Below are positions 17,891 through 36,407 of a stretch of DNA of 36,407 nt, piece by piece. Position numbers and translations under genes: made by a program. The stretch's first letter is position 1, and the number at the start of each line of letters is the position of its first letter. This stretch comes from a bacterium (lineage in GTDB: Bacteria > Latescibacterota > Latescibacteria > Latescibacterales > Latescibacteraceae), in the NCBI GenBank assembly GCA_021372535.1, contig JAJFUH010000203.1:1-36407 (forward strand), given 5' to 3'. The notes beneath the pieces are model-generated. The model worked only from the letters and a program-made list of their open reading frames with translations. It had not been told where the DNA came from and did no database searches.

Positions 17891-18934
17891 ATGAAACGTC
17901 GCGATTTCATCACACGGAGTGTGATGGGGGCATGTGCACTCGGAGCAACAGGTTGCGGCGCCCGTAAACCGAAAAATATTCCACTCTGGAAAGAACTTGC
18001 TCCTTTCTACCCGCGTCCGGGAGGCGGTTCAATGCCGATGTCGGAACTCGGCAAAACGGGCATCAGGATTTCCAACTTCGGATTCGGGTCACACATCAGG
18101 GCGGAAATGAGAACCTATGACAAGCAGCGTGAATACATGATTCACGAAGCGCACGATCTCGGCGTTAACGTATTTGACGTCTACGATCAGGAAGAAGGGG
18201 TATCAACGGGCGGCAGCTACCAGTACGAGCCGTTCGGCAAACAGATCGCCCCATTCAAGAACGATATTCTCATATCCATATCCTTCCGGCCATTCGACGG
18301 GCGGACTCCCGAACAGGAGCTTGAACGCGACCTGCGGCTTTTCGGCCGTGAGCACATCGACCTCGTACGAATTCTCCGTAAACCCGAGGATCCGATCTGG
18401 GAAACCCTTTTCCGCTTCAAGGAGAAAGGGTATATCCGCGCTGTCGGAGCGCCCATTCATGATATGGAGCATGTCGACTGGCTCGTCGGGAAGGTTCCCA
18501 TCGACTATATTCTCTTCCCGTACAACTTTTATCACAACATCTGCTGGTTCGAGGAAAAAGAGGATGATTTCGATCCCCTGCCGACCCGTCTCCGCGAGAA
18601 CGGCATCGGCGTAATGACCATGAAACCATTTGCCGGCGATTATCTTGTCAGGCCGTTCATCGAAGTCGCCCGGCAGGTTGCCCGTGAAAAGGAAATCAGT
18701 TTCACCAAGGCGGCGCTCCGTTATGTCATCAATTCGGGAGTGAAACCCGCAACGACACTGACCGGGATGTACAACCTCTATAACCTTTACGAAAATGTTG
18801 AAGCCTATTACAACCCGACCATGAGCGACGAGGAGCGGGAACTCCTGAACAATATCAGGCAGTACGCGAGCCGGACCTCACATGCGCTGCTTCCCGGACA
18901 TTACAAATGGCTCGATAACTGGGCCGGCGTATGA
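17891..18934 (+). CDS. Tat lipoprotein, aldo/keto reductase-like (paralogue 1)
   Basis: A 347-residue protein. KRRDFIT at 2-8 is a Tat motif, and ATGC22 is a plausible lipobox, so the mature protein is probably a lipid-anchored periplasmic enzyme. The rest is an aldo/keto reductase barrel: ELGKTGIRISNFGFGS, D96 in VNVFDVYD, and an SLxxLxxDxIDL-like block (DLRLFGREHIDLVRI). Two catalytic residues of the usual Asp-Tyr-Lys-His set are absent: the strand that should end in Lys reads ILISISF, and the His position is L162. An iron-sulfur C-terminal domain is not present. Activity as a normal NAD(P)H reductase is doubtful, also because the periplasm lacks NADPH. AAAGGGAG precedes the ATG. Its stop codon lies in the first bases of the repeat element that follows. 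Confidence 0.82.
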   Translation: MKRRDFITRSVMGACALGATGCGARKPKNIPLWKELAPFYPRPGGGSMPMSELGKTGIRISNFGFGSHIRAEMRTYDKQREYMIHEAHDLGVNVFDVYDQEEGVSTGGSYQYEPFGKQIAPFKNDILISISFRPFDGRTPEQELERDLRLFGREHIDLVRILRKPEDPIWETLFRFKEKGYIRAVGAPIHDMEHVDWLVGKVPIDYILFPYNFYHNICWFEEKEDDFDPLPTRLRENGIGVMTMKPFAGDYLVRPFIEVARQVAREKEISFTKAALRYVINSGVKPATTLTGMYNLYNLYENVEAYYNPTMSDEERELLNNIRQYASRTSHALLPGHYKWLDNWAGV

Positions 18935-18960
18935 ACAGGATTGACAGGATTAGAATTTTT

Positions 18961-19035
18961 TTGACAGGATTTACAAGATTAACAAGATAAAACATTTAAT
19001 AAGAAAAAATCCTGTAAATCATGTTAATCATGTCT
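18961..19035. repeat. GxxExxY-element repeat, copy 1
   Basis: The left arm GACAGGATTTACAAGATT.. and right arm ..AATCATGTTAATCATGTC form an imperfect inverted repeat of about 26 nt per arm with roughly 5 mismatches, around an AT-rich centre (AACATTTAATAAGAAAA). Each arm is itself built from a 9-nt period (ACAGGATTT, ACAAGATTA, ACAAGAT). Confidence 0.75.
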
Positions 19036-19125
19036 AAACAAATAATTTTGTTAATCATGCAAGTTCTTTGAATAGAAAAATCCAGATCATTCAAATGGAT
19101 GGAATTTAAAAAAGCAATTTTATTA

Positions 19126-19202
19126 TTGACAGGATTTACAAGATTAACAAGATGTAAAATATTTAATAAGAAAAAATCCTGTAAATCATGTTAATCATAT
19201 CT
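19126..19202. repeat. GxxExxY-element repeat, copy 2
   Basis: Nearly identical to copy 1 over its full 77 nt; the centre differs by a few bases (GATGTAAAATATTTAATAAG). It ends 17 bp before the start codon of the GxxExxY gene, so in RNA the hairpin would sit directly upstream of the ribosome binding site AAAAGG. Confidence 0.75.
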
Positions 19203-19219
19203 GATAAAAAAGGTTGTAA

Positions 19220-19591
19220 ATGGAAATCAATGAATTAACGGAGCTTATAATCGGTTGTGCGTATAAGGTTCATAAAGAGCTCGGGATGGGATTTCTTGAG
19301 AAAGTGTATGAAAACGCTTTAAAGATCGAACTTGAGAATAGCGGACTGGATGTCAATCAACAGTACCCCATCACCGTGAATTATCACGGACAGGTAATTG
19401 GTGACTTCTTTGCGGACCTTTTTGTGGAAAAACAGGTGATCATTGAGTTGAAAGCAGTCCAGAATCTGGCCAGAGAGCATGAAGTACAACTCGTAAACTA
19501 TCTCGCGGCCACCGGAATAGATAATGGTCTCCTTATAAACTTCGGTTCGTCTGTCAAAGTAAAGCGAAAGTTCAGAAAATATAACGGATAG
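19220..19591 (+). CDS. GxxExxY protein (PD-(D/E)XK nuclease-like)
   Basis: A 123-residue protein of the GxxExxY family, a usual length for it. The name motif is G24-F-L-E27-K-V-Y30. A PD-(D/E)XK-like core follows: D66 in DFFADLF, then E76-L-K78 on the next strand (VIIELKAV), and a helix-strand end NYLAATGIDNGLLINFG. Members are small, widespread, often multicopy and of unproven biochemical function; the residues suggest a metal-dependent DNA- or RNA-acting nuclease. The start is supported by AAAAGG. It is enclosed by repeat copies on both sides and interrupts a run of sugar-metabolism genes, so it is probably an accessory passenger unrelated to them. Confidence 0.9.
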   Translation: MEINELTELIIGCAYKVHKELGMGFLEKVYENALKIELENSGLDVNQQYPITVNYHGQVIGDFFADLFVEKQVIIELKAVQNLAREHEVQLVNYLAATGIDNGLLINFGSSVKVKRKFRKYNG

Positions 19592-19611
19592 GATTAACAG
19601 AATGTTTTTTT

Positions 19612-19689
19612 TTGACAGGATTTACAAGATTAACAAGATGTAAAATATATATTTAAATAAAAATCATGTAAATCATGTTAATCATGTCT
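19612..19689. repeat. GxxExxY-element repeat, copy 3
   Basis: The left arm TTGACAGGATTTACAAGATT is identical to copies 1 and 2, and the right arm is AATCATGTAAATCATGTTAATCATGTCT. The centre is shorter and more AT-rich, and the right arm has lost the ATCCTGT unit. It has the same orientation as the upstream copies, so the gene lies between direct copies of a unit that is internally inverted. Confidence 0.75.
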
Positions 19690-19787
19690 ATTAAAATATT
19701 TTTGTCAATCATATCTAATTATATAACTTTATTAATCATGTCTATTAAAAGAAATTCATTATCACTGTCAGATGAAAGGTACAATTC

Positions 19788-20687
19788 ATGAGACTCTGCT
19801 GGAACGATGGTTTGGGCGGTCCTCTGGGAAAATTGGACCCGAAAGAAGCAAAGCTCATATATGATATAGGATTCCGTGTTGCCGGAGTCAATGCCGGTTA
19901 TCAGGAACCCTCGGAAGCGGATATCGATCATGCACGGAACGTGCTTGCGGACGCAGGGCTTACGCCGGGTCCTTACGGTATCGGAGCTTCCGCTGTCCGG
20001 CCCGACAAAACCGAGGAAAAAGAACATATGCGTCAGATCGCTCAGGCGCTTAAAATCGCCGGGAAACTCAAGTGTACGGCGCTCAGGTATTCGGTCGGAA
20101 GCCTGCATCCCAAAGATATCTGGATGCATCATCCCGACAATCATACACAGAAAGCTCTCGACAGACTTATCGATAACACACGGGAGCTCGTTCCTGTCGC
20201 CGAGGATTCGGGTGTCATGCTCTGCCCCGAAACTACCCTGTGGACCATTGTCAACAGCATCGAGCGAATGAAGGAATTCGTCGACCGGCTCGACTCACCC
20301 TATGCCAGAATCACTTTCGATTTTGTCAATCACATGTCCTACGACCGTGTTTACGAATCGGGGCGGTTCATGAGGTGCGCTGTTGCCACGCTTGGCGACC
20401 GTATCGGCGAGTTTCATGTCAAGGATGTCATGGTGCAGGATAAGCTTCTCGTCTGCCATATCGATGAGGCTCCGATGGGAACCGGCCTTCTTGATCACGA
20501 AACACTCATCCGTGTTTCGACACAGCTCGAGCCATGGAAAACTTTCTCGCTCGAACACATTTCGGAATATGGTCAAGTCAAAAAGGCACACGACCATATA
20601 CAGGGTATCGCAGACCGTATCGGACATACATGGACAGATCCGCGCCTGACACGGCCTCTTTGGGAACGCGATAAACAAAAAAAATAG
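19788..20687 (+). CDS. Xylose isomerase-like TIM barrel (sugar isomerase/epimerase family)
   Basis: A 299-residue cytosolic protein (no signal) of the AP-endonuclease-2/xylose-isomerase-like TIM-barrel family, members of which isomerise or epimerise sugars and sugar acids or open inositol rings. The four metal ligands are visible in order: E in CPETTLWT, D in TFDFVNH, H in EFHVKD and E in SLEHI. The ATG is preceded by AAAGG 8 nt upstream, just after the repeat element ends. Its stop codon overlaps the AGGAG ribosome binding site of the next gene, so it is tightly coupled with the second aldo/keto reductase-like gene. The substrate is unknown; a keto or oxidised sugar from the neighbouring oxidoreductases is a reasonable guess. 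Confidence 0.85.
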   Translation: MRLCWNDGLGGPLGKLDPKEAKLIYDIGFRVAGVNAGYQEPSEADIDHARNVLADAGLTPGPYGIGASAVRPDKTEEKEHMRQIAQALKIAGKLKCTALRYSVGSLHPKDIWMHHPDNHTQKALDRLIDNTRELVPVAEDSGVMLCPETTLWTIVNSIERMKEFVDRLDSPYARITFDFVNHMSYDRVYESGRFMRCAVATLGDRIGEFHVKDVMVQDKLLVCHIDEAPMGTGLLDHETLIRVSTQLEPWKTFSLEHISEYGQVKKAHDHIQGIADRIGHTWTDPRLTRPLWERDKQKK

Positions 20688-20699
20688 GAGTACTGCTCT

Positions 20700-21803
20700 A
20701 TGAAACGCCGTGATTTTATCCTGAAAACCGCCGCCGGAACGCTCGGCGCAGGTCTTGCCGGCTGCGGCTCAGGCGCACCGCGGACGATGCTGATCAAAAA
20801 GGATGACATACGATATTCGGACTATTCGTTCAAGGCCACCGTTCCCAGGCCATCAGGCGGGAGTATTCCCGCGGGGGAGCTTGGTACGACCGGTATCAGG
20901 GTATCGAAATTCGGCTTCGGCTCGCACATGCGCAGCGACATTGTCAAGTTCTTCGATGAACGTCAGCAGATCATTCGCGAAGCGTACGACTGCGGTATCA
21001 ACCTATTCGATGTCTATGACAAGGAACATGAGTGTTACCAGTACGAGCCGATGGGTAAACACCTCGCGCCGATGATCAAAAACGTTGTCATATCCATAGC
21101 GGTGCTGCCGTATGAAAACCGCACATTGGAGCAGGAATTCGAGCGCGATCTCAAGCTCTTCGGCCGCGACCACATCGATCTCGTCCGCATCCACGCCTAT
21201 GACCCGTCCCAACCGGGCTGGGAATACTGGGAAAAGTGCTTCCGGCTCAAGGAAAAGGGCGCAATCCGTGCTGTCGGCGTTCCGGTGCATTACCTGAGCG
21301 ATCTCGACAGTGTACTCAGCTCATTCCCGTTGGATTTTGTCCTCTTCCCGTACAATTACTACCATAACACGGCATGGCTCGGCCACTCTGTCGAGGGGAA
21401 GTCGGCCGATTTCGAGCCTCTGCCGGAAAAACTCCGGAAAAAAGGCATCGGTGTCATGACCATGAAGGCGTTTGCCGGGGATCCGCTCCAGCCGCCGCTG
21501 AGACATGTTGCCGATTCGATAAAAAAACACCCTGAGCTCAATTACAACCAGGCGGCGCTGCGGTATGTGATCAATTCTCCGGTCAGGCCCGATGCGACCG
21601 TAACCGGCATGTACAACCTCGACCACCTCTACCTTAATGTCGATGCTTATCTCCGCCCGCAGATGAGCGCCGAGGAACGCGAGCTTCTTGAGAAGGTGAG
21701 AAACGTCGCCCGGCTCAGCGCAAAGGCATGGCTGCCCGACCATTACAGATTTCTCGAGGAATGGGCTTCGGAGACAACCGATCTCGGTGAAATTTCGGTA
21801 TAA
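20700..21803 (+). CDS. Tat lipoprotein, aldo/keto reductase-like (paralogue 2)
   Basis: A 367-residue paralogue of the 17891-18934 product, similar along its full length. KRRDFIL at 2-8 is the Tat motif and GLAGC22 a canonical lipobox, so it should be an exported, lipid-anchored enzyme. Barrel landmarks are ELGTTGIRVSKFGFGS, D104 in NLFDVYD and DLVRIH with H165. Unlike paralogue 1 it keeps the His, but the catalytic-Lys strand again lacks Lys (VVISIAVLPY). The ribosome binding site TAGGAG overlaps the stop codon of the preceding TIM-barrel gene. It is last in its run; the convergent URO-D gene follows after 132 bp. The pair may act on related substrates, or one may be regulatory or inactive. 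Confidence 0.83.
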   Translation: MKRRDFILKTAAGTLGAGLAGCGSGAPRTMLIKKDDIRYSDYSFKATVPRPSGGSIPAGELGTTGIRVSKFGFGSHMRSDIVKFFDERQQIIREAYDCGINLFDVYDKEHECYQYEPMGKHLAPMIKNVVISIAVLPYENRTLEQEFERDLKLFGRDHIDLVRIHAYDPSQPGWEYWEKCFRLKEKGAIRAVGVPVHYLSDLDSVLSSFPLDFVLFPYNYYHNTAWLGHSVEGKSADFEPLPEKLRKKGIGVMTMKAFAGDPLQPPLRHVADSIKKHPELNYNQAALRYVINSPVRPDATVTGMYNLDHLYLNVDAYLRPQMSAEERELLEKVRNVARLSAKAWLPDHYRFLEEWASETTDLGEISV

Positions 21804-32325: not shown

Positions 32326-35300
32326 CTACTTCATGAACAGCATCTTTTCCGTAACCGATGCATAGCCTGAATCGACACGGTACAGGTATATCCCCGATGT
32401 GAGACCGGCGGTATCAAAAACGAGCTCGTGAACGCCCGGCCCCATAAAGCCCATATCATAATCACGCACCCGCTGTCCCACGGAATTGAATATGGTGATA
32501 TGCACGCGACCGGCAGTCGAAAGCGTATACCTGATTGTCGTCTGCGGATTGAACGGGTTGGGATAACAGGTCGCGGTCACATACCGTTCGGGCTGAATAG
32601 CCGTATCCTGACGTTCCTGCCGGACACCGGATGCAACCGTAAGGGTATAATGATGTGCCGTGATACCCTTCTCCGACAAGAACTCGAACGAATCGCCGTT
32701 CAGGGCAACCGGCTTACCGCTGTCACGGTCGGTGATGGCTATCGTACAGCCTTCGGGAAGCGTATCGACACCCTCAAGCCTGACCGACACACGCTCGCGG
32801 GAGATATTGGTTTTCACATCAAAATCCCACATGACCGTCTCGCCCGGGGGCCGGAAATCGACAGTATAGTCGCTCGGATACTGGAGCCAGTCCCTGTGCG
32901 GGAACAGAACGGAGACATATTCACCGACCGCCGGCGGCTCGACATGGTCGTAACGATCCCATCCGGCCGAAGCGTCCTGCCTGACTCCGAGGTGATTGGC
33001 GGAATCGACAGCCTGCCCTGCCGCTGCAGCGATTGAGAGCACCCAGTCGGACGGATTTGCATCGACCACGGCTTTTCCGGCAGACTGGCGCGTGGGCTGG
33101 AGCCTGATAATGACCGTACGGTTGGAAAGGTTCTTGACCGAGTATCCTTTCCACGGTTCCATGACCGTGGGAGGCTTGGTCGGATCAGTCCAATGGCCTT
33201 CATATGTATAAAGAACGCTGAGCTCCGCTCCGGAGGGATTCTCGATATTGCTCCACGATATATCGAACATCCAGGGATTGGCAATATCGTTCCAGCCGGA
33301 TTTCAGCTCGATTTTGAACGGTTCTGCCGTGGTAACCGTTTTCCCCGCGGGCGATTCGAGTTCGTATTTTTCTTTTGCTATTACCCAGAACGCCCTTCCC
33401 GGAGCAAATCCCTCGGTATTGGGATATTCCTGTGGCGTTTCGCTGCCCGGCTGATACCGGTAAATGCGCCAGTCAACCCCTGTTTCTCCCTTCGGCAGTT
33501 TTCCGGAAAGCTGGTCGACAATAGATGTTTTCACGAGCTCGAGCGGGATGGAAACCATGCGATAGGCAGTCTGGACACTTCCGCCCGTGACCGGATTCTC
33601 GGTCTTAATGTCTTTCACCACTGCCGTTATCGAATAGAATCCCTCGCCGGCCGGCGTTCTTGTTTCCTTGTCTTCGGCGTCCCTGGCGGTGATGTAATAC
33701 TCCATTCCGAGTGCTGTGAAAATTCCCTCGGTCATGGTTACCGAAAACGCATTATTGTTACCCGATGAAGTCATTGCAAGATGACTGCTGAACACACGGT
33801 CTCCCGTCTCGTCATAATAGAGCATTACCTCTTTGATTTCCGTATTGCTCGTCACCTGAGCCGTAAAGGTAAGCTCCCTGTTCTCTTCCGCTTCAGCAAT
33901 CGGACTGTGCGTTATCTGAATCACCGGTTTGACTATGGTGAAAAGGTCGCTCTGGGCGGAGAGAGCCGAATTTGATGTGTCGGATAGCCTGATCAAACAG
34001 TCAGCCGACTCCGCTTCAGGAACCTTCCACACGTAATACCCGTCCGATGCCGAAACACTCGCCGCAATTTCCTGCCATGTATTACCGCCATCGGTCGAGA
34101 GCTCGATCTTTATTTTCGATATTCCCTCGAATTTCCAGTTGATCTCGTACTGGGCGCCCGAAGACCATGTCTGACCCGCCGAGGGTGAAGTGACACTAAT
34201 AAAATTACCCGCAACGATGGAGAATACCCCGGAAACGGCGGTGATATCCCTGGCGGAGGTGTCGCTGATTCTCACTTTACATGTACCGGATACATCGCTC
34301 GGGATTGTCCAGCGGTATACTTTCAGGGTTGCATCGATATCGGTCACGATCTCTTTCCAGGTGGTTCCGCCATCGGTTGAATAGTCGATCGCGACATTCT
34401 TGATTCCCTTTAAAGTCCACCGTATGGGCTGTTCTGACCTGACAGTCCATTTATCACCGGCCGCCGGGGCTTCAACCGTTATCGATGACACGAATGTCAG
34501 TGTAAAGAAGCCGTCGCTTTTATCCGTAATCGTGTCGTCGGTCATACTGGAAACCTTAATAAGACATTCATTCGATCTGTTAAAAGGAAAATTAATGGTA
34601 TGTCTGCCCGTATCGGCGGCGATATCATTGGCGAGCATTGTCCATGTCTGGCCGTTGTTCGGTGAAAAGTCGATCCGAACCCTGGAAACATTCACCGCAT
34701 TCCACCGTACTTCATACGGCTGATCGGCCGAGACAGTCTCGCCGCCGTTGGGCGCGAGAACCTGAACCACTGGCGCCTGACCGCCCTTGAATATCGTGAA
34801 GGGCTGTTGATTCATCGCGCCGATCTCGGTGCTGTCGGAATCCGCCACAAAGATAAGGCATTTATCGGATTCGACAGTGTCGGGAATCAGCCATTTGAAT
34901 GAGCCGGTATTGGCATCAGCCCTGAGCTTGACAATATCCCATGTTTCACCCAGATTTATCGAATAGACAATACTGACCTCAGTTACGTTGACCGCATTCC
35001 ATACGATAGGATATATTTTTCCGGCTTCCCAGAGCTCACCGCCGACCGGTGAAACAAGCTCGATGCTCTTCTCTCCCGTCACCCTGAAAATGGTAAATGG
35101 CGCATTGCTCGCATCATTCTGATCCGCATTCTCCGCATCGCTCACTCTCACAAGGCATTGTGCCGAGGGCGTGTCGGGCACCGTCCACGCATAAGTCCCT
35201 GCGCTTGCCGGTAAGCTGGCAATAATTACAGTCCAGTTTGTTCCGTTATCGGTTGTGTATTCGAGCTTGACATTCGAGACTCCGGATGAATTCCACCTGA

Positions 35301-36407
35301 TAACATGACTGGAGCCGGCAGCCCAGTTTTCCCCTCCCTGGGGTGAGCTGAGCGAGATCATGGCTTCCTGGCCAGAAGGAACGATTGCGATTGCCTGATC
35401 GCTGTTGTCGTAGAGCTGATCATTACCGGAGTCGCCAACCGAAATATAGCACTGGGGAACATCGAGATTGGCCGGAATCGACCATGTGAAGTATCCGAGG
35501 CTCGCATCGACATTCTCGGCAATGACGTTCCAATGTATGCCGCTGTCGGGAGTGAACCATATATCGACGCTCTTCACGCCGCCTGATTCCCACCATATGT
35601 CGTACTCGCCTCCCGCCTGCCATTCTTCGAATTCGTTTGGATACCAGACAGTGATAAACGGCTCGTAAAACTCCACTGAGGGACGCGTCGTAAGCTCGAT
35701 GCCCCTGACTGTCACCACAATCTCTTTTATACCGGGAACCGTGCTCGAAAAGGTAACCCCGATGATACCGGTCGCGTCGGATTGGGCTTTGTCAAAGCTC
35801 AGGTCTACCTTTTCCGCAGTGCCGTTGCTTCCCAACACTTTTACCACGATATCGGTAACAGGTATGCCCAGTACCGGATTACCGTCCTTATCGTTCAGGG
35901 TAATTACCACGGTGGTTTTTTCACCGGCGTATAAATCCGGGGGGTCCGTGTATGCGGACGAAGCATCCGGATCGATGCCAGCGGTGGGCAGCAGTATCTC
36001 AAAAACGGCGGAACTCCGTGCAATCATCGAGGTATCGGCCTCGTTGATGAGCCGGACGAGGCAGTTGTCGGAAAGCGTCTCGGGCACCATCCAGTCGTAT
36101 TTACCCGCCTCCGCATTGACCTGTGTAGCAACCCCCATCCAGTTCTGCCCGTTATTCACCGAGTACTCGATGGTAATCAGTTTGACGTTCGAGGCTTCCC
36201 AGATGATGGCAAAGGTTTTGTTCGCTGCGAGTTTTTCGCCGCCGTTGGGGGATATGATGGTTAAAATCCTGGTTCCGGAGGTTTCCAGAGCGAAAGCATA
36301 GAGACATAGATCTTTAGTCGACCCCACATAAATTGTGCCGTCGGAGCCTATCACGGGCGAGGACTGGATAGAACCCTCAAACTGGTATTTCCATTTCAAT
36401 GTCCCGT
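32326..36407 (-). CDS. Giant Ig-repeat surface protein with T9SS-type sorting domain (5' partial)
   Basis: At least 1359 residues; the frame runs off the window's right end, and the TTG at 36399 is not a real start, because a PQQ-type propeller blade (GTLKWKYQF...SSPVIGSDGTIYVGS) continues past it. Numbered from that TTG: propeller end (1-36), seven modules of about 90 residues with the pattern SPxGGExW..W...V..V.IxYSxxxGxxW...xPxxxxxxCLxRxSD (45-136 and 248-823), a Big_1-like domain (about 140-246), an FN3/Ig-like domain (about 826-925), a mixed beta region, and a C-terminal FlgD/type A sorting domain with YPNPFNP, then GxHxLxFD and SGIYLYRV. It is probably secreted by a type IX system and fixed to the surface, with an adhesive or polymer-binding role. 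Confidence 0.87.
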   Translation of the reverse strand, partial: GTLKWKYQFEGSIQSSPVIGSDGTIYVGSTKDLCLYAFALETSGTRILTIISPNGGEKLAANKTFAIIWEASNVKLITIEYSVNNGQNWMGVATQVNAEAGKYDWMVPETLSDNCLVRLINEADTSMIARSSAVFEILLPTAGIDPDASSAYTDPPDLYAGEKTTVVITLNDKDGNPVLGIPVTDIVVKVLGSNGTAEKVDLSFDKAQSDATGIIGVTFSSTVPGIKEIVVTVRGIELTTRPSVEFYEPFITVWYPNEFEEWQAGGEYDIWWESGGVKSVDIWFTPDSGIHWNVIAENVDASLGYFTWSIPANLDVPQCYISVGDSGNDQLYDNSDQAIAIVPSGQEAMISLSSPQGGENWAAGSSHVIRWNSSGVSNVKLEYTTDNGTNWTVIIASLPASAGTYAWTVPDTPSAQCLVRVSDAENADQNDASNAPFTIFRVTGEKSIELVSPVGGELWEAGKIYPIVWNAVNVTEVSIVYSINLGETWDIVKLRADANTGSFKWLIPDTVESDKCLIFVADSDSTEIGAMNQQPFTIFKGGQAPVVQVLAPNGGETVSADQPYEVRWNAVNVSRVRIDFSPNNGQTWTMLANDIAADTGRHTINFPFNRSNECLIKVSSMTDDTITDKSDGFFTLTFVSSITVEAPAAGDKWTVRSEQPIRWTLKGIKNVAIDYSTDGGTTWKEIVTDIDATLKVYRWTIPSDVSGTCKVRISDTSARDITAVSGVFSIVAGNFISVTSPSAGQTWSSGAQYEINWKFEGISKIKIELSTDGGNTWQEIAASVSASDGYYVWKVPEAESADCLIRLSDTSNSALSAQSDLFTIVKPVIQITHSPIAEAEENRELTFTAQVTSNTEIKEVMLYYDETGDRVFSSHLAMTSSGNNNAFSVTMTEGIFTALGMEYYITARDAEDKETRTPAGEGFYSITAVVKDIKTENPVTGGSVQTAYRMVSIPLELVKTSIVDQLSGKLPKGETGVDWRIYRYQPGSETPQEYPNTEGFAPGRAFWVIAKEKYELESPAGKTVTTAEPFKIELKSGWNDIANPWMFDISWSNIENPSGAELSVLYTYEGHWTDPTKPPTVMEPWKGYSVKNLSNRTVIIRLQPTRQSAGKAVVDANPSDWVLSIAAAAGQAVDSANHLGVRQDASAGWDRYDHVEPPAVGEYVSVLFPHRDWLQYPSDYTVDFRPPGETVMWDFDVKTNISRERVSVRLEGVDTLPEGCTIAITDRDSGKPVALNGDSFEFLSEKGITAHHYTLTVASGVRQERQDTAIQPERYVTATCYPNPFNPQTTIRYTLSTAGRVHITIFNSVGQRVRDYDMGFMGPGVHELVFDTAGLTSGIYLYRVDSGYASVTEKMLFMK
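33931..36267 (-). repeat. Seven Ig-like coding modules
   Basis: Seven copies of a 90-residue beta-sandwich module (Kre9/KNH-like style, with a conserved Trp-rich strand and one Cys near the end of each). Copies 2-7 are nearly contiguous (33931-35658) and copy 1 (35992-36267) is split off by a different domain. Protein-level similarity is clear; DNA has diverged, so this is an old expansion. Confidence 0.8.

What the first reader, a model, noticed from the sequence alone, without database searches (positions are those of the whole stretch)
18932..19743. A GxxExxY nuclease-like gene packed between three copies of an internally palindromic repeat, lodged in a sugar operon
A small PD-(D/E)XK-like gene (G24xxExxY30, D66, E76xK78) is flanked upstream by two and downstream by one 75-78-bp repeat, all in the same orientation, plus partial arms at both ends. 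It sits between two genes that otherwise look like one operon. The unit looks like a self-contained element without a transposase. If the encoded nuclease recognises the repeats, this would be a minimal two-part mobile or domesticated system.
Basis: partly seen in the sequence, partly recalled or inferred. Interest (0 to 1): 0.72.

Follow-up and report, generated by a model that had tools for sequence, protein, structure and literature searches.

The report
Nuclease gene inside its own hairpin repeats
A small, uncharacterised nuclease gene found across bacteria and archaea sits between hairpins built from short repeated DNA words, each branch of the nuclease family tends to have its own word, and gene and hairpins come and go between related genomes, so this looks like a widespread and apparently undescribed kind of miniature mobile element.

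Summary
Confirmed and much larger than reported. The window's GxxExxY gene (TIGR04256/PF13366) lies between three ~75-bp stem-loops built of 9-nt words (ACANGAT plus 2 nt) in an AKR-TIM-AKR gene run. A same-genus genome has that run without the gene. In 125 GxxExxY loci from many phyla and one archaeon, flanks carry tandem words with 8-10-nt period (lag 9: 14.0 vs 2.8 per kb away from the gene) arranged as inverted arms or hairpins. The word follows the protein clade, not the host phylum: 22 changes on the protein tree against 54.9 for shuffled labels (0 of 200); class-free test, cross-phylum, 0 of 500. All 8 genomes with a window-type gene hold 11-125 window-word arrays; 43 of 45 others hold at most 5, and the other two carry a related word type. 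Gene-bearing, gene-less and empty versions of the same sites occur in congeners. The protein models as a minimal Cas4/lambda-exonuclease-like nuclease with conserved catalytic residues. Best reading: a mobile hairpin system whose cognate recognition factor is the GxxExxY nuclease, analogous to REP/RAYT with an unrelated enzyme. Recognition is inferred from covariation; cleavage and transposition are untested. No description was found in the open-access papers searched.

The parts
17891..18934 (+). aldo/keto reductase gene upstream of the insertion
   Evidence: PF00248; ortholog next to the site without the gene in G001
18935..18953 (+). partial word arm (ACAGGATTGACAGGATTAG) directly after the stop codon of the reductase
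18961..19034 (+). stem-loop copy 1 of 9-nt words
   Evidence: 95% identical to copy 2; fold
19045..19059 (+). partial reverse arm
19126..19201 (+). stem-loop copy 2 of 9-nt words
   Evidence: reference copy; fold
19220..19591 (+). GxxExxY PD-(D/E)XK nuclease-like gene, 123 aa
   Evidence: TIGR04256 144.7 bits, PF13366 145.5 bits; model pLDDT 96.1
19612..19688 (+). stem-loop copy 3 of 9-nt words
   Evidence: 91% identical to copy 2; fold
19701..19745 (+). two partial reverse arms (GTCAATCATATC, ATTAATCATGTC)
19788..20687 (+). TIM-barrel sugar-isomerase-like gene downstream of the insertion
   Evidence: PF01261; 83% identical ortholog in G001 without the insert
20700..21803 (+). second aldo/keto reductase gene
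   Evidence: PF00248

Best explanation
A miniature mobile element system made of (i) ~75-80-bp hairpins whose arms are tandem 8-10-nt words, scattered in tens of copies between genes, and (ii) a small PD-(D/E)XK nuclease, GxxExxY, encoded between such hairpins. Shown: the association is family-wide, the word is clade-specific across phyla, high copy number of the word goes with presence of the cognate gene, and both gene-bearing and gene-less forms are present or absent at the same sites in related genomes. Inferred: the nuclease binds its own word array (probably the extruded or single-stranded hairpin), cuts at its base or at a target, and repair or replication copies the hairpin into intergenic sites; the gene-bearing form is the autonomous member and solitary hairpins are its non-autonomous followers. 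The gene usually lies in sense orientation inside host operons and is probably expressed by read-through.
For: Inverted upstream/downstream arms in 76-89% of loci, against 5% of control genes by construction (the control-gene set of the relatives subset is small, n=6). Period 9/10/8 signal in flanks of 125 loci. Flanks labelled by a word class 97/125 against 26/225 control windows; label changes 22 vs 54.9 shuffled, 0/200; phylum needs 58 changes. Unsupervised Mantel test 0/500, also with cross-phylum pairs only. Window-word array counts: 8/8 cognate-gene genomes have 11-125; of 45 others, 13 and 7 in two genomes with the related F-type gene, 5 in one, 0-1 in the rest; reversed-pattern control 0 everywhere. 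Site polymorphism for gene-bearing and gene-less forms and for solitary hairpins in Spirosoma. Catalytic D66, E76, K78 and Q90/Y94 invariant in 69 proteins; Cas4/lambda-exonuclease/Hjc-like fold. Y1 transposase genes in the same genomes are not near the words, and two genomes with more than 50 arrays show no reverse transcriptase match.
Against: No biochemistry and no observed transposition event. Target-site duplications and exact ends could not be resolved because flanks have diverged. Four-helix-bundle (PF05635) genes, not known as nucleases, show a similar architecture with 7-nt words, so a nuclease need not be the mover in every such system. Y1 transposase matches exist in all 8 cognate-gene genomes, so help in trans is not excluded. 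Word classes were defined after looking; classes D and E are only 1.5x and 1.3x enriched over background. One genome (G002, 80% complete) has 5 window-type arrays and no cognate gene seen.
Confidence: 0.58

Rival explanations
1. The hairpins are moved by another enzyme (a Y1/HUH transposase, the replication fork or a reverse transcriptase in trans), and GxxExxY is a word-specific passenger or regulator that binds the hairpin, for example to protect or silence it.
For: Four-helix-bundle genes without known nuclease activity share the architecture; Y1 matches occur in all 8 genomes.
Against: Y1 genes are not near the words: 15 words in 24 kb, about background. RVT_1 had no match in G062 and G068, which hold more than 50 arrays each. 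The catalytic residues of GxxExxY are invariant, unlike what is expected of a pure binder.
Confidence: 0.27
2. The hairpins are ordinary regulatory elements or terminators of a normal host gene.
For: Sense orientation within operons (66 of 74 insertions between co-directional genes).
Against: Gene and hairpins are present or absent at the same site in congeners; the same word follows the protein across about nine phyla; the well-aligned Spirosoma copies have T-rich 5' and A-rich 3' edges, opposite to an intrinsic terminator.
Confidence: 0.05
3. A homing-type element: the nuclease cuts word-free intergenic sites and repair from the occupied allele copies gene and hairpins, so the words are end structures and not the recognition site.
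For: Single-ORF elements, spread of clades across phyla, empty sites in congeners of filled ones.
Against: Many solitary copies at unrelated sites do not fit site-specific homing; word-clade covariation points to recognition of the word.
Confidence: 0.1

Closest known systems
REP elements with TnpA-REP/RAYT (REPtrons; PMC8266576, PMC3116915)
   Same: Small palindromes in many intergenic copies, a cognate gene flanked by them, co-diversification of protein and repeat.
   Different: RAYT is an HUH Y1 enzyme and its REPs mostly carry a GTAG tag; here the enzyme is PD-(D/E)XK, the arms are tandem 8-10-nt words without GTAG, and the gene-bearing unit itself is often multi-copy and present or absent between species.
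GxxExxY protein family TIGR04256 / PDDEXK_3 PF13366
   Same: The window protein is a member far above the curated cut-offs.
   Different: No function or repeat association of the family was found in the papers searched.
Cas4 / lambda-exonuclease class of PD-(D/E)XK nucleases
   Same: Closest solved folds, with the QxxxY motif.
   Different: 123-aa minimal core with a single cysteine, so no Cas4-type iron-sulphur cluster; 14.8 bits against a Cas4 cut-off of 65.
23S rRNA intervening-sequence four-helix-bundle genes (PF05635; PMC4990558)
   Same: Small ORF flanked by inverted short-word arms.
   Different: Unrelated protein, 7-nt words instead of 8-10-nt words.
MITEs and eukaryotic foldback elements (comparison from memory)
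   Same: Non-autonomous hairpins or inverted repeats, some with arms made of short tandem units.
   Different: No cognate transposase; target-site duplication not shown.

Membership tests
TIGR04256 / PF13366 (GxxExxY) | profile score above curated cut-off | tested here: met
   144.7 bits vs 35; 145.5 bits vs 22
PD-(D/E)XK nuclease superfamily | core fold with D, E-x-K catalytic residues | tested here: met
   D66, E76, K78 invariant in 69 proteins; confident model matching Cas4, lambda exonuclease and Hjc
PD-(D/E)XK nuclease superfamily | nuclease activity | not testable with these tools
   needs purified protein
REP/RAYT (REPtron) | HUH Y1 enzyme encoded among the repeats | tested here: not met
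   Encoded protein is PD-(D/E)XK; Y1 genes of the same genomes lie away from the words
REP/RAYT (REPtron) | GTAG tag at the palindrome | tested here: not met
   absent by inspection in the window copies and in 20 Spirosoma copies
REP/RAYT (REPtron) | protein and repeat covary | tested here: met
Cas4 | Cas4 profile score and cysteine cluster | tested here: not met
   14.8 bits vs cut-off 65; one cysteine in the window protein
MITE / transposon | target-site duplication | tested here: inconclusive
   empty sites found, but flanks too diverged for exact ends
23S rRNA intervening sequence | location in 23S rRNA and a four-helix-bundle ORF | tested here: not met
   located between metabolic genes; ORF is PD-(D/E)XK

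The most novel reading that the evidence does not exclude
GxxExxY elements are a new class of mobile DNA spread over bacteria and archaea, in which a minimal Cas4/lambda-exonuclease-type nuclease recognises a clade-specific 8-10-nt tandem word folded as a hairpin and propagates it; four-helix-bundle (IVP-type) genes with 7-nt word hairpins are a second, convergent class, so one general hairpin-copying route serves unrelated proteins.
Probability: 0.45. Interest if true: 0.93.

Novelty: new variant of a known kind. Interest (0 to 1): 0.8.

Why it matters
It offers a function for a large uncharacterised family, explains why many environmental genomes are dotted with ACAGGATT-, CGCGGAT- or CACAGAT-type palindromes, and makes repeat-protein recognition testable with ready-made pairs: one genome holds three paralogs with three different words. 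If the nuclease drives copying, REP-like dispersal has arisen with a second, unrelated enzyme.

Tried and rejected
An alignment of 20 diverse proteins was too divergent for a contig scan, so a closer one was used; the wide sample is therefore biased to the GFLEKVYE clade. A first raw 6-mer Mantel test was noisy but significant. Rfam: only a chance miRNA hit below threshold. PADLOC: only weak Cas4/PDC hits, no defence system. Phages and plasmids: 2 phage records and 8 plasmid records, all under 60% identity, so the elements are mainly chromosomal. A sequence search of the PDB found no homolog. Solitary Spirosoma copies were compared with congeners to find target-site duplications; empty sites were found, exact ends not resolvable. 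Literature searches by family name, by word sequence and by architecture found no description; only open-access papers are held.

Full report
Observation. The window gene at 19220-19591 is a GxxExxY protein (TIGR04256, PF13366). It is enclosed by three same-orientation stem-loops (18961-19034, 19126-19201, 19612-19688) plus partial arms. The arms are tandems of a 9-nt unit, for example GACAGGATT-TACAAGATT-AACAAGAT, closing on ATCCTGTAA-ATCATGTTA-ATCATGTC. Each copy folds as a hairpin, modestly better than shuffles. The neighbours are reductase, TIM barrel, reductase.

Same genome. G000 has three GxxExxY genes, each flanked by a different word: ACANGAT here, CGCGGAT at C161, and CCGGGATT/CAGGATT-like words at C64. 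Window-type words also occur at about 20-30 other places, mostly as solitary arms or hairpins between genes.

Family-wide. Searches gave GxxExxY loci from many phyla and an ANME-1 archaeon. By eye, most have inverted arms of short words. The best alignment of the upstream flank with the reverse complement of the downstream flank exceeds the 95th percentile of control genes in 76% of 75 wide loci (86 control genes) and 89% of 28 relatives (only 6 control genes). Without any predefined word, 5-mers recur in the flanks at lag 9 (14.0 per kb against 2.8 at 700-1200 nt away), lag 10 (8.1 vs 1.0) and lag 8 (3.0 vs 1.0).

Word follows protein, not host. Classes ACANGAT, CGCNGAT, CACNGAT, CRCRRAG and YRCGAAW label 97 of 125 flanks but 26 of 225 control windows. 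On the protein tree the labels need 22 changes against 54.9 for shuffles (0 of 200), while phylum needs 58. The window clade keeps ACANGAT in all 20 labelled rows across about nine phyla; the CRCRRAG clade keeps its word in all 14 labelled rows over five groups including the archaeon. The B and C classes are interleaved, so specificity there is looser. The classes were chosen after inspection, but the unsupervised comparison of tandem words with protein identity is also beyond all 500 permutations, including for cross-phylum pairs alone (the correlations themselves are weak, rho 0.18 and 0.16).

Copy number goes with the gene. A three-word window-type array (2 mismatches allowed) was counted in 53 genomes. 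The 8 with a window-clade gene have 11, 32, 35, 38, 48, 53, 56 and 125. Of the other 45, G040 has 13 and G036 has 7, and both carry F-type genes whose words overlap the pattern; G002 has 5; all others 0-1. The reversed pattern gave 0 everywhere.

Presence and absence. In the same-genus genome G001 the reductase-TIM-reductase run (TIM 83% identical) has a ~150-bp spacer without the gene but with a hairpin of a different word, GGCACAAAG. In another genus of the phylum: at site 1, G016 and G025 carry gene plus CACAGAT arms where G019 has a 23-nt spacer; at site 2, G016 has the gene, G025 a gene-less derivative with the same arms, and at least five others neither; at site 3, gene plus words, words only, and neither all occur. 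In Spirosoma arboris 20 solitary ~80-bp hairpins share arms (TTTTCTG-ACAGGATTTACAGGATGAACAGGAT) but have largely unrelated 15-22-nt loops; arms of one copy match each other better than arms of different copies (0 of 2000 permutations). At least one such site is empty in two congeners.

Protein. G24, Y30, D66, E76, K78, Q90 and Y94 are invariant in 69 diverse members. The model (pLDDT 96) matches Cas4 SSO0001, lambda-type exonucleases and archaeal Hjc. Genes lie in sense orientation between co-directional neighbours in 66 of 74 such cases. The family is nearly absent from phage and plasmid records.

How it works. Shown: association, clade-specific words, dependence of copy number on the cognate gene, site polymorphism, intact catalytic residues. 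Inferred: the protein recognises and cuts its word hairpin and so promotes copying. A HUH enzyme in trans is not excluded, since Y1 matches occur in all 8 genomes, but Y1 genes do not sit near the words; a reverse transcriptase is unlikely, since two array-rich genomes show none. The unresolved point is that four-helix-bundle genes show a parallel architecture with a 7-nt period (21.4 vs 7.0 per kb, 21 loci), so the nuclease may be one of several proteins adopted by hairpin elements.

Known systems. It works like REP/RAYT (PMC8266576) but fails two defining features, the HUH enzyme and the GTAG tag. No paper describing it was found in the open-access library, which does not prove it is undescribed.

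Noticed in passing
L064-L091 (PF05635 loci; G000 C175, C130, C24): Four-helix-bundle (23S rRNA IVP-type) genes are flanked by hairpins of 7-nt words (e.g. GGCATAAGGCACAAGG), a parallel to the GxxExxY elements with an unrelated protein.
   Followed up: partly
L266-L285 (Spirosoma arboris): Solitary ~80-bp hairpins keep conserved arms while their loops are nearly unrelated; arms within a copy are more alike than between copies. No explanation yet.
   Followed up: partly
L219 (G025, site 2): Gene-less derivative with the same terminal arms and a replaced or deleted interior, like a non-autonomous element.
   Followed up: partly
L288, L290, L291 (Spirosoma relatives): At sites of the solitary hairpins, related species carry other, unrelated hairpin families (e.g. 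TCGGCGGGCTTCAGCCCGTC...), as if these spacers were hot spots.
   Followed up: no
L035 and L128: GxxExxY genes with different words inserted between what look like orthologous gene pairs (neighbour resembles a restriction-modification gene, judged by eye) in two phyla.
   Followed up: no
window 32326-36399: A 1357-codon open reading frame on the minus strand, not examined.
   Followed up: no
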